Shown piece after piece: positions 935 to 32,293 of a stretch of DNA of 64,000 bases. The notes below the pieces were generated by a model, which did not search any database, was not told where the DNA came from, and saw nothing but the letters and a program-made list of their open reading frames with translations. Source of the DNA: Streptococcus porcinus (GTDB lineage Bacteria > Bacillota > Bacilli > Lactobacillales > Streptococcaceae); the NCBI RefSeq assembly GCF_900475415.1, contig NZ_LS483388.1, positions 1,598,001 to 1,662,000 of the forward strand. The letters run 5' to 3'. The number at the start of each line of letters is the position of its first letter. Positions within the stretch are counted from its first letter, which is position 1. Position numbers and translations under genes: made by a program.

Positions 935-3319
935 CTACATAAAGTTTTGCGGTTCATGATCAATAACGACTTTTAATTCACGTTGTTCTTTGTGTTGTGT
1001 CCAATCTAAAATATGGTTTAAAGTGTCTTCTAATTTTTCTTCAAAGCGATATTTGAGGATGATCTGATAGTGAAAGAGATTGTGCGTCCTCGCAATAGGC
1101 TTAGGTGTCGGCCCTAAAATTTTCACATTAGAAGTCAACCCTTCTCTTAACATCGTCATAACTTGATAAGCTTTCTTAATCACTTCTTGTTCATCTTGAT
1201 GAGACATAATAAGACCAACTGTAAAATAATAAGGCGGGTAGGCCATTTTTTGTCTCATTTTCATCTCATAGGCATAAAAGGCTTCATAATCTTGTGATTT
1301 AGCTAATTGAATAGCATAGTGATTAGGGTTATAAGTTTGGATGAGAACTTCACCTGTCTTTTCAGCACGACCAGCACGACCAGATACTTGTGTCAACAAT
1401 TGAAATGTTCTTTCTGAAGAGCGAAAATCGGGTAAATTAAGAGAAGTATCTGCGTTTAGCACACCAACAAGGGTCACATTTGGAAAATCAAGTCCCTTAG
1501 CAATCATTTGAGTTCCCAATAAGATATCCGCTTCTTGCCGACCAAAAGCTGAAAGGAGTTTTTCGTGACTTCCTTTTTTACGAGTAGTATCAACATCCAT
1601 TCTTAGTATTCGTGCTTCTGGTAAGACTTGTAATAACTCATCGTAGGCTTTTTGTGTTCCCGTTCCGTAGTAACGAATACTTGAACTCTGACAGTTTGGG
1701 CAGGTTTTAGGAATTGCTTTTTGAAAACCACAATAATGGCAGTTCATAGACTTAGTATCCATGTGTAAGGTCAGAGAAATATCACAGTTTGGACAAGTAT
1801 CTACATAACCACAGTCACGACACATGATAAAACTAGAATAACCACGACGATTTAACATGAGGACAACTTGTTCTTTTTTAGACAAACGATCTTTAATTTT
1901 ATCAATCAAGTAGGGAGTAAAATTACTCACATCTTGTTTGCCAATATAATCTCGAAAATCAACAATTTCCACTTGAGGGATTTGTGCATGGGGATTCGCC
2001 CTTTGAGTTAACTCTATGAAGTGATAGACACCCTTGGTCGCACGAGCTCGGCTCTCAATACTAGGTGTAGCAGAACCCAACACTAATACAGCGTGATGGG
2101 TTTGTGCACGTAACAAAGCAACATCACGAGCATGATAGCGCGGATTAGATTCCTGCTTATAAGAAGATTCATGTTCTTCATCAATAATAATAGCACCGAT
2201 ATTTTCTAGTGGAGCAAAAATAGCAGACCTTGCTCCTACAACTACTTTAGCCTGTCCATTTTTAATTTTTTGCCACTCATCAAACTTTTCACCATCAGAT
2301 AAACCCGAATGCATTATAGCTACTAACTTACCGAAACGTGAAATAAATCGGCTTGTCATTTGAGGAGTTAATGAAATTTCTGGAACCAAGACAATTGCCG
2401 TCTTTCCCAATTTTAAAACGTACTCAATCAGATGCAAGTAAACTTCTGTCTTTCCAGAGCCAGTTATCCCTTCTAATAAAAAAGGTTTATTATCCTGGCC
2501 AATAGCTGCAGCCATTTCTGTCACTGCGTGTGCTTGTTGACTATTAAGCATTAGAAATTGGCTACTCTCCACTGCTTCAAAATAAGCATCACTTCGATTG
2601 ATTTGGACCTCATAGACTTTTAGCAATTGATGCTCGACAAAATAGGTGACAATATCCCGAGAAAAGGAGTTTTGCAAAGTTTTAAGCCTACCATTTTCTG
2701 GATGCTCTATTAAAAAATTTTGTAGAGCTTGACGCTTTTTAGCTCTGTTAGAAATAACATGTCTTTGCAAAGCTTCTAAGTCAGTCTGATACCACTTTTC
2801 CTTCTTGATTTTCTTACGGTCCTGAGCTAAGTAGGTCAGTTTTATTTTTCCTAATTTTATCAGAGATAAACTCATTTTTTCCTGTTCCTGACTAAGTTGC
2901 GAAGCCAGCACCTTAGTCTTTCCAGCAAAAATAAAAGCTTTTTCTTTTTCTGAAATCTTCTCTGTCGGAACTAGTTCCTTATCATAATGGGAATTTAAGA
3001 GATTAGGAATCATGGCCTTTAAGAGACTAATCTTGTATGAAAAGACTGTCTCGCGCATAGCGTCAGCTAAAGCCAGCTGTTCTGAGTTCAAGACTGGCTC
3101 AGCATCTAGTAAGGAAACGATGCTTTTTAAATCCGTTTTTTCTTCTTTTGTAAATCCAACAACAAACCCTTGCACCAATCGACTCCCTCGGCCGAAGGGA
3201 ACATGAACCCTTGATCCAAGAGCTACTAACCCTTGTAATTCCTCTGGAATTCTATACGTAAATGGCTTATCCGTTTGCATTAAAGGGATATCAACAATAA
3301 TTTGAGCCAATTTTTGCAT
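935..3319 (-). CDS. priA: Primosomal protein N', replication restart helicase
   Basis: Superfamily 2 DNA helicase that recognises stalled forks and reloads the replisome. The 794 residues match family length. Visible are the N-terminal DNA-binding domain (about 1-110), Walker A GITGSGKTEVY near residue 285, the DEEH box in IIIDEEHESSYKQ, and the zinc-binding cysteines (CRDCGYVDTCPNC, then CHYCG and CPNC) near 505-545. The helicase C-terminal part carries QVSGRAGRAEKTG. It lies between rpoZ and fmt; a hairpin with a T-run separates it from rpoZ, so it may be expressed partly by read-through. Confidence 0.97.
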   Translation of the reverse strand: MQKLAQIIVDIPLMQTDKPFTYRIPEELQGLVALGSRVHVPFGRGSRLVQGFVVGFTKEEKTDLKSIVSLLDAEPVLNSEQLALADAMRETVFSYKISLLKAMIPNLLNSHYDKELVPTEKISEKEKAFIFAGKTKVLASQLSQEQEKMSLSLIKLGKIKLTYLAQDRKKIKKEKWYQTDLEALQRHVISNRAKKRQALQNFLIEHPENGRLKTLQNSFSRDIVTYFVEHQLLKVYEVQINRSDAYFEAVESSQFLMLNSQQAHAVTEMAAAIGQDNKPFLLEGITGSGKTEVYLHLIEYVLKLGKTAIVLVPEISLTPQMTSRFISRFGKLVAIMHSGLSDGEKFDEWQKIKNGQAKVVVGARSAIFAPLENIGAIIIDEEHESSYKQESNPRYHARDVALLRAQTHHAVLVLGSATPSIESRARATKGVYHFIELTQRANPHAQIPQVEIVDFRDYIGKQDVSNFTPYLIDKIKDRLSKKEQVVLMLNRRGYSSFIMCRDCGYVDTCPNCDISLTLHMDTKSMNCHYCGFQKAIPKTCPNCQSSSIRYYGTGTQKAYDELLQVLPEARILRMDVDTTRKKGSHEKLLSAFGRQEADILLGTQMIAKGLDFPNVTLVGVLNADTSLNLPDFRSSERTFQLLTQVSGRAGRAEKTGEVLIQTYNPNHYAIQLAKSQDYEAFYAYEMKMRQKMAYPPYYFTVGLIMSHQDEQEVIKKAYQVMTMLREGLTSNVKILGPTPKPIARTHNLFHYQIILKYRFEEKLEDTLNHILDWTQHKEQRELKVVIDHEPQNFM

Positions 3320-30123: not shown

Positions 30124-31374
30124 TTAATCGCGAATTTGTCCATTACCATTAATATAAAACTTGCTGCTTGTTAAAGCTTCTAACCCCATTGGTCCCCTTG
30201 CATGGATTTTCTGAGTTGAAATACCAATTTCTGCGCCTAAGCCAAATACAAAACCATCCGTGAAACGCGTTGACGCATTGACATACACTGCTGCTGCATC
30301 AACCTGTTCTTGAAACCTTTCAGCTGCTGCTATATTTTGTGTAATAATGGCTTCAGAATGATGACTACTATAAGTATTAATCCAGGAGATCGCCTGATCA
30401 AGTGAGGACACAATTTTTACTGACATGATATAGTCCAAGTATTCCATTCCATAATCTTCCTGACTAGCTAAGGTAGCCTCTTTAAAGAAATTAATAGCTA
30501 GTGAATCTGTTCGAAAAGCGACTGGATGCACTGCAGAAATAGCTTTTTCAAGTTGGGGAATAAAACGCTCCGCGACTGCTTCATGAATAACCAAACTTTC
30601 AGCAGCATTACAAACACTTGGTCGTTGCGTTTTGGCATTAATCACAATGCGGGTCGCCATATCAAGGTCGGCTGTTTCATCGATATAAATATGAACATTT
30701 CCTATGCCAGTCTCGATAACTGGCACCTTAGCTTTTTCCTTAACAGTCTGAATGAGTCTAGCGCCGCCTCGAGGAATCAAGACATCTATATAATCAGTAG
30801 CACCCATTAACTCTTCTGCTAAGGTATGTGAAGGGTCTTCAAGTAATTGAATAGCATCCTCCGCCATTTTGGAACTTTTCAGGCTTGATCTAACAACTTT
30901 GACTAAAGCTTTGTTGGTATTTAAAGCATCTCTACCCCCTCTAAGAATGATAGCATTATTCGTTTTGAAGGCTAGACTAAAAGCATCGATGGTAACATTG
31001 GGGCGACTTTCAAAAATCATTGCAATAACGCCTAACGGAACCCTCTTTTGGACAATTTTTAATCCGTCTAAATTAGTATAGCCTTTAATAACTTGACCAA
31101 TAGGATCTTCCAAATCTGCTACTTTTTTTACGCCTTCAACAATTGCTTTGATACGTTCTTTAGTTAGTAATAAACGATCTAACATTATGTCTGAAATATC
31201 ATGGTCTTTTGCTTGATCCATATCTTTTTGATTTTCCTGCAGAATAAAATCACTATTACTAAGTAGATCATTAGCTAATTGCAATAAAAAATTATTTTTC
31301 TCAAGTGTTGATAAGCTGAGTAGGTCAAAACTTGCTTTCTTGGCTTGACAACCAAGTCGATTAATTAAGTCCAT
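30124..31374 (-). CDS. proA: Gamma-glutamyl phosphate reductase
   Basis: Second step of proline synthesis: NADPH reduction of gamma-glutamyl phosphate to the semialdehyde. The 416 residues match the family. The NADP site region [20 protein letters not shown] is near 117-136; the catalytic cysteine is in [17 protein letters not shown] near residue 255; [13 protein letters not shown] is the conserved end. It overlaps proB by 14 bases, so the two are co-translated. Confidence 0.96.
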
Positions 31375-32254
31375 TTTCTTTCCTCTCTTCTTTTATGAAC
31401 CAGGTACCAATCTCTTTACCATCAAGTAAGCGTAATATATCTCGCGGATTTTTTCCATTCATCAAAACCATTTGGCTATTATTTTCGAAAATCATTTGAG
31501 CAGATTGAACCTTGCTTAACATGCCACCAGTTCCAAATTTACTGCCTGCTCCACCTGCTGATAGAATAATTTCCTCAGTAATTTCAGTAACCAAATGACG
31601 AAGTTTAGCATCTTCATAGAGTGTCGGATTTTTATCAAATAAACCATCAATATCTGATAACATAATCAATAAGTCTGCTTTCGTTATCTTAGCTACTACA
31701 GCTGAGAGCCTGTCATTATCTCCAAACTTAGTGGCATGGTCCATTTCATCAACACTGACTGCATCATTTTCATTAACAATGGGTAGGATACCAAGTTTTA
31801 AAAGACTTTCAAATGCATTAGTGACGTTCAAAAGGCTCTCTGGAAAAATAACAACATCGCGTGTCAATAGAATTTGAGAAACATTTTTTTGATAATGAGA
31901 AAAAATTTGAGAGTAAAGACTCATCATAGCTACTTGTCCTACACTTGAGACTGCTTGTTGTTTAGCTAGTTCACTAGGACGCTTTGCCATCTTTAGCATA
32001 TCAAGACCAAAGCCCATAGCTCCTGAAGATACCAAGATCACTTCTTTTCCTTTATTCATAAGACTAGCAATAACAAAGGCCATAGCTCCTGAAGATACCA
32101 AGATCACTTCTTTTCCTTTATTCATAAGACTAGCAATAACAAAGGCCAATTGATCAATCTTCTCAAGGTTAATCTTCCCATCCATCTGTACAAGTGAACT
32201 AGTTCCGATTTTGATAACAATACGTTTAACAGTTTTGAAATTTCTTTTCATCAT
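31361..32254 (-). CDS. proB: Glutamate 5-kinase with an internal 22-residue duplication
   Basis: First step of proline synthesis, phosphorylating glutamate with ATP. Start ATG at 32252-32254 ([20 protein letters not shown]) gives 297 residues, 22 more than the usual ~275 because residues 37-58 ([16 protein letters not shown] then VSSGAM) are repeated as 59-80. The repeated block contains the SSGAM loop that binds glutamate. The remaining kinase domain is intact: [33 protein letters not shown] and [18 protein letters not shown]. Because the repeat is in frame the protein is full length, but the fold is probably disturbed. The ATG lies 6 bases after an extended -10, suggesting a leaderless mRNA. 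A second ATG follows directly. Confidence 0.9.
32014..32145. repeat. Perfect 66-bp tandem duplication in proB
   Basis: Copy 1 is 32014-32079 and copy 2 is 32080-32145, identical at every base, and the match runs on for three more bases (CCA) at the junction. The unit is 22 codons, so the reading frame is kept. The identity implies a recent event. Confidence 0.97.
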
Positions 32255-32260
32255 GAGAAA

Positions 32261-32269
32261 ATTATAGCA
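32261..32269 (-). promoter_or_regulatory. Extended -10 promoter of proBA
   Basis: Minus-strand TGCTATAAT, followed by 6 bases and the proB ATG. The predicted transcription start therefore falls on the ATG. No -35 match is seen where the preceding terminator hairpin lies. Confidence 0.65.
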
Positions 32270-32293
32270 TAAAAACAGCCCAGTAGGGCTGTT
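32270..32293 (-). terminator. Terminator of the ABC exporter operon
   Basis: AACAGCCC / GGGCTGTT with a 4-base loop (32274-32293); on the minus strand a T5 tract follows and runs straight into the proB -10 box. Confidence 0.88.

What the first reader, a model, noticed from the sequence alone, without database searches (positions are those of the whole stretch)
32014..32145. Perfect 66-bp in-frame tandem duplication through the glutamate-binding loop of proB
Two identical 66-base units (plus 3 more matching bases) duplicate ProB residues 37-58, including the SSGAM loop that contacts glutamate in the amino-acid kinase fold. The frame is preserved, so it is not an ordinary knockout. Perfect identity means it is recent. 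It probably lowers or abolishes glutamate kinase activity (proline auxotrophy), or it changes feedback inhibition; because exact tandem repeats recombine easily, it could also be a reversible on/off switch.
Basis: partly seen in the sequence, partly recalled or inferred. Interest (0 to 1): 0.75.

Follow-up and report, generated by a model that had tools for sequence, protein, structure and literature searches.

The report
Recent in-frame duplication inside proB
One streptococcal genome carries an exact 66-base tandem copy inside its only gene for the first step of proline synthesis; it looks like a recent one-off mutation that probably cripples the enzyme, and nothing found shows it to be a switch.

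Summary
Window 32014-32148 (minus strand) holds two identical 66-bp units inside proB: 69 nt of exact match at period 66. It is the only exact tandem repeat at offsets 12-500 in the window and far beyond chance. The frame is kept: [22 protein letters not shown] (residues 36-57) occurs twice in a 296-aa ProB.

The allele appears private. Its junction occurs in 1 of 284 genomes of the genus, the window's own; the two nearest relatives have one copy. In the nearest one TGGnnTTTG lies at both borders, 66 bp apart, so replication slippage explains the event.

Apart from the insert proB looks healthy: dN/dS 0.055 against the nearest relative, no deviation at 73 conserved positions. So the change is young. 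It adds 22 residues at the invariant SSGA motif, where no ProB that I aligned has an insertion. Loss or strong loss of glutamate kinase activity is likeliest (inference; structure prediction could not be run). proB is single and no ornithine aminotransferase was found, so proline auxotrophy would follow. No evidence for a switch or altered feedback. Ordinary; low interest.

The parts
31361..32251 (-). proB, glutamate 5-kinase (296 aa), the only proB match in the genome
32081..32146 (-). unit copy 1, cut at codons (ProB residues 36-57, 5' copy in the gene)
32015..32080 (-). unit copy 2, cut at codons (ProB residues 58-79, 3' copy in the gene)
32074..32082 (-). junction between the copies, TGGCCTTTG on the coding strand; the outer borders read TGGCCTTTG (32140-32148) and TGGGCTTTG (32008-32016)
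30124..31374 (-). proA, glutamate-5-semialdehyde dehydrogenase, intact (416 aa); its start overlaps the proB end by 14 nt

Best explanation
A recent, private tandem duplication of 66 bp arose in proB by slipped mispairing between two near-identical 9-nt borders 66 bp apart (TGGCCTTTG and TGGGCTTTG in this lineage). It repeats the end of a helix, the next strand and the SSGA loop, and so puts 22 extra residues at the glutamate site of ProB. Shown: the duplication, its frame, its absence from the relatives examined, the border match. Inferred: the slippage itself, that the protein folds badly or loses most of its glutamate kinase activity, and that the cell then depends on proline or proline-containing peptides from outside. 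It would be tolerated because a host-associated streptococcus, or a strain kept on rich medium, gets proline from its surroundings.
For: Exact run and border matches. The nearest relative (G163, unnamed) has one copy, with TGGCATTTG and TGGGCTTTG exactly 66 bp apart at the same borders. Both window copies carry CTT and GTG where G163 and G173 both have CTC and GTT, so the duplication followed those changes on the window's branch, barring conversion between copies. dN/dS of proB, window vs G163, 0.055 over 274 aligned codons with the 22 insert codons left out; five neighbouring genes 0.027-0.129. The window ProB agrees with the majority at 73 of 73 columns conserved at 90% or more in 44 relatives. 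In 108 of 109 other fetched ProB loci there is one ORF with one SSGAx motif; the 109th, L044, is itself split and has one motif in a fragment (about 94 distinct contigs; one search kept the best 80 of 201 candidates). One proB, one proC, no match to the ornithine aminotransferase or PutP models in the genome. proB is dispensable in the genus: 34 of 284 genomes have no match over the family's cut-off (incomplete genomes and split genes included).
Against: No test of activity. A full set of conserved residues is present and the family score is still well over its cut-off (289 vs 186), so a looped-out copy might leave some activity. The rest of proB, and proA, show no decay. An assembly error is not excluded. 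The border match is imperfect (8 of 9 in the window, 7 of 9 in G163), and G173 has the TGGnnTTTG form at one border only.
Confidence: 0.68

Rival explanations
1. The duplicated enzyme still works well enough: one copy takes the native place and the other bulges out, perhaps with changed kinetics or proline feedback.
For: Frame kept, conserved positions kept, purifying selection in the branch as a whole, family score over cut-off (289 vs 186).
Against: None of the 44 other ProBs aligned has an insertion here, and 108 of 109 fetched loci keep a single SSGAx motif in one ORF; the repeat carries a hydrophobic strand and lies at an invariant motif.
Confidence: 0.17
2. Assembly or sequencing artefact: the genome really has one copy.
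For: No reads available; only one assembly carries it.
Against: Single-contig genome, 100% complete by the tool's figures; an artefact rarely makes an exact in-frame duplication with slippage-type borders (inference).
Confidence: 0.08
3. A reversible switch: gain and loss of the unit turns proline synthesis off and on, as tandem duplications are reported to do for pneumococcal capsule genes.
For: Exact tandem repeats can contract; precedent in pneumococcal capsule genes (passages and reference titles in PMC4022640).
Against: No second state seen; junction in 1 of 284 genomes; the borders are not conserved even in the second relative; no clear benefit of varying proline synthesis. Sister strains and reads could not be examined.
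Confidence: 0.07

Closest known systems
Spontaneous sequence duplications in pneumococcal capsule genes (type 3 locus, cap8E, tts; Waite et al. 2001 and 2003, seen only as reference titles and a short description in PMC4022640)
   Same: Short tandem duplication inside an ORF of a streptococcus, likely inactivating
   Different: Here a gene of primary metabolism, in frame, seen in a single genome, with no reversion or second state shown
Glutamate 5-kinase ProB of the short type (TIGR01027, PF00696; solved relatives 4Q1T, 2AKO, 2J5T)
   Same: Whole amino-acid kinase domain; all 73 strongly conserved positions kept
   Different: 22 extra residues at the SSGA motif, seen in none of the other ProBs aligned

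Membership tests
Glutamate 5-kinase (ProB) | Score over the curated cut-off of TIGR01027 | tested here: met
   289 bits vs cut-off 186
Glutamate 5-kinase (ProB) | Conserved residues kept | tested here: met
   73 of 73 columns conserved at 90% or more in 44 relatives
Glutamate 5-kinase (ProB) | Uninterrupted helix-strand-SSGA loop-helix segment | tested here: not met
   22 columns (44-65 of A1) occupied by the window protein alone
Glutamate 5-kinase (ProB) | Glutamate kinase activity | not testable with these tools
Phase-variable tandem duplication | Exact tandem repeat inside an ORF | tested here: met
   69-nt exact run at period 66
Phase-variable tandem duplication | Recurs at the same place in relatives | tested here: not met
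   junction pattern in 1 of 284 genomes, the window's own; the pattern fixes the peptide across the junction, so a diverged repeat would be missed; in the 109 fetched loci none has two SSGAx motifs
Phase-variable tandem duplication | Copy number varies within the strain or species, with on and off phenotypes | not testable with these tools
   no second strain of this species and no reads were available

The most novel reading that the evidence does not exclude
The 66-bp unit is gained and lost at measurable rates and makes proline synthesis a reversible, heritable on/off trait in this species: a tandem-duplication switch in primary metabolism.
Probability: 0.05. Interest if true: 0.5.

Novelty: new member of a known kind. 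Interest (0 to 1): 0.17.

Why it matters
It is a clean example of how one slippage event may remove a biosynthetic step while leaving gene, frame and neighbours intact, so that annotation and metabolic models would call the strain able to make proline when it may not be. It matters mainly as a caution for this strain.

Tried and rejected
Fixed feature of the genus: rejected. Chance repeat: rejected. Old duplication: not favoured, but identity alone gives only a weak bound (95% upper age 0.78 of the split with proB's dS of 0.255, 0.70 with 0.285, no bound with 0.13-0.17 as in neighbouring genes). Other decay in proB: not seen. A second proB that would cover for it: no second match. Other proline routes: only ornithine aminotransferase and the PutP transporter were searched, without a match; ornithine cyclodeaminase and peptide uptake were not searched. 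An inverted repeat pair (31966-31980 and 32188-32202) flanks the duplication; of its two 10-nt core arms each of the two relatives has only one exactly, so no claim is built on it. The longer, PUA-type ProBs of other streptococci (37-41% identity) were covered by the junction pattern only, not by alignment. Paper searches for a proB duplication, such an auxotrophy, or S. porcinus proline metabolism showed nothing direct in the listings; some searches were on tandem duplications and phase variation, on glutamate kinase structure. Papers: passages only of PMC4022640, PMC1618759, PMC8472793, PMC13198045; passages and section 6 of PMC8963878; all others as search listings. The role of Ser50 of E. 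coli glutamate kinase as a glutamate contact is recalled, not read.

Full report
Observation. The minus strand of 31361-32251 encodes a 296-aa ProB (TIGR01027 289 bits; PF00696). Inside it lie two identical 66-bp units: positions 32014-32082 match 32080-32148 exactly, a run of 69 nt at offset 66. It is the only array that Tandem Repeats Finder reports in the 64 kb window; the next longest exact run at offsets 12-500 is 14 nt, and 20 Markov resamples reached 12-15 nt. 66 is a multiple of three and the frame stays open; [22 protein letters not shown] is present twice, as residues 36-57 (32081-32146) and 58-79 (32015-32080). The finding is confirmed.

Distribution. The junction, written as a degenerate pattern for the peptide across it, occurs in 1 of 284 genomes of the genus, the window's own. 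In 108 of the 109 there is one ORF with one SSGAx motif, 40-48 residues from the first glycine motif; the other, L044 (Streptococcus uberis CAIM 1894), is split into at least two pieces. In the alignment of the window protein with 44 of the 80 named relatives, 22 columns are occupied by the window protein alone. The closest relatives are G163 (unnamed, 97% over residues 58-296) and G173 (96%), whose contig length equals that of S. pseudoporcinus LQ 940-04. The window's species is therefore close to S. pseudoporcinus, perhaps S. porcinus (a recalled guess, not tested).

Origin and age. On the coding strand TGGCCTTTG (first border), TGGCCTTTG (junction) and TGGGCTTTG (last border) are spaced by 66; in the one-copy G163 TGGCATTTG and TGGGCTTTG lie exactly 66 bp apart at the same places, while G173 shows the TGGnnTTTG form at the last border only. 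This is what slipped mispairing between short near-identical borders would leave behind. Within the unit both window copies have CTT and GTG where G163 and G173 both have CTC and GTT, so the duplication came after those changes on the window's branch, unless conversion has made the copies alike. Identity alone is a weak clock: 15 synonymous sites, about 2-4 expected differences if the duplication were as old as the split. dN/dS of proB against G163 is 0.055 over 274 codons (insert codons left out), inside the range of five neighbours, 0.027-0.129, and the window ProB departs from none of 73 columns conserved at 90% or more. The gene was under purifying selection for most of the branch, and may still be.

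Effect. Glutamate kinases share the amino-acid kinase sandwich fold (section 6 of PMC8963878). The duplicated stretch covers, by analogy, the end of a helix, the next strand and the SSGA loop. V, the second S, G and A of VSSGA are invariant in 45 sequences, and that Ser aligns without gaps to position 50 of the chain 2J5T, E. coli ProB (PMC13198045 passage), which I recall as a glutamate contact. Wherever the protein places its native copy, 22 residues with a hydrophobic strand must be accommodated either inside the first helix or right behind the glutamate loop. The genome has one proB match, an intact proA, one proC, and no match to the ornithine aminotransferase model or the PutP symporter model, so loss of ProB would mean dependence on outside proline, presumably through peptides or other transporters, which I did not search. 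The genus tolerates lack of proB: 250 of 284 genomes have a match over the cut-off and 34 do not, though 283 have some match at E 0.001 or better, mostly to be expected from other amino-acid kinases.

Switch or feedback change. Nothing here supports either. Contraction of an exact tandem repeat is always possible, and in pneumococci sequence duplications in capsule genes are reported to control phase variation (reference titles and passages in PMC4022640). But no second state, no recurrence and no conserved borders were found, and no reads or sister strains were available.

Background. In 300 kb sampled from the same genome (15 stretches of 20 kb of 2.03 Mb) exact head-to-tail repeats of 12 bp or more occur in one repeat-rich surface-type protein (L120), as a 12-bp pair (L123) and as a 19-bp duplication at the end of a gene that I take for mutY by eye (L127). 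L118 and L122 hold spaced, not head-to-tail, repeats (up to 68 nt exact at offset 214; genes not examined). So slippage-type duplications occur elsewhere in this genome, but apart from the surface protein no head-to-tail repeat as long as the one in proB was seen in the sample.

Verdict. A genuine feature of the sequence: most likely a recent, private mutation of a well-known kind; of interest for the strain, ordinary for biology.

Noticed in passing
window 32249-32293 (minus strand): A TGCTATAAT extended -10-like box (32269-32261) ends six bases before the first proB ATG (32254), right behind a terminator-like hairpin (32274-32293), with no evident ribosome-binding site: proB may have a leaderless or nearly leaderless transcript. 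Read by eye; the scan reports the hairpin (on the + strand) but not this box.
   Followed up: no
L044 (Streptococcus uberis CAIM 1894), 2501-3291: proB is split into at least two pieces in this assembly: another sign that the gene can be lost, or a sequencing error.
   Followed up: no
L127 9896-9940 (window's own genome): 19-bp tandem duplication starting just before the stop codon of a gene that looks like mutY; the first copy keeps the stop.
   Followed up: partly
L120 2317-5562 (window's own genome): Surface-type protein with collagen-like and PGKPEV repeats, including a 297-bp unit repeated exactly over 315 nt.
   Followed up: no
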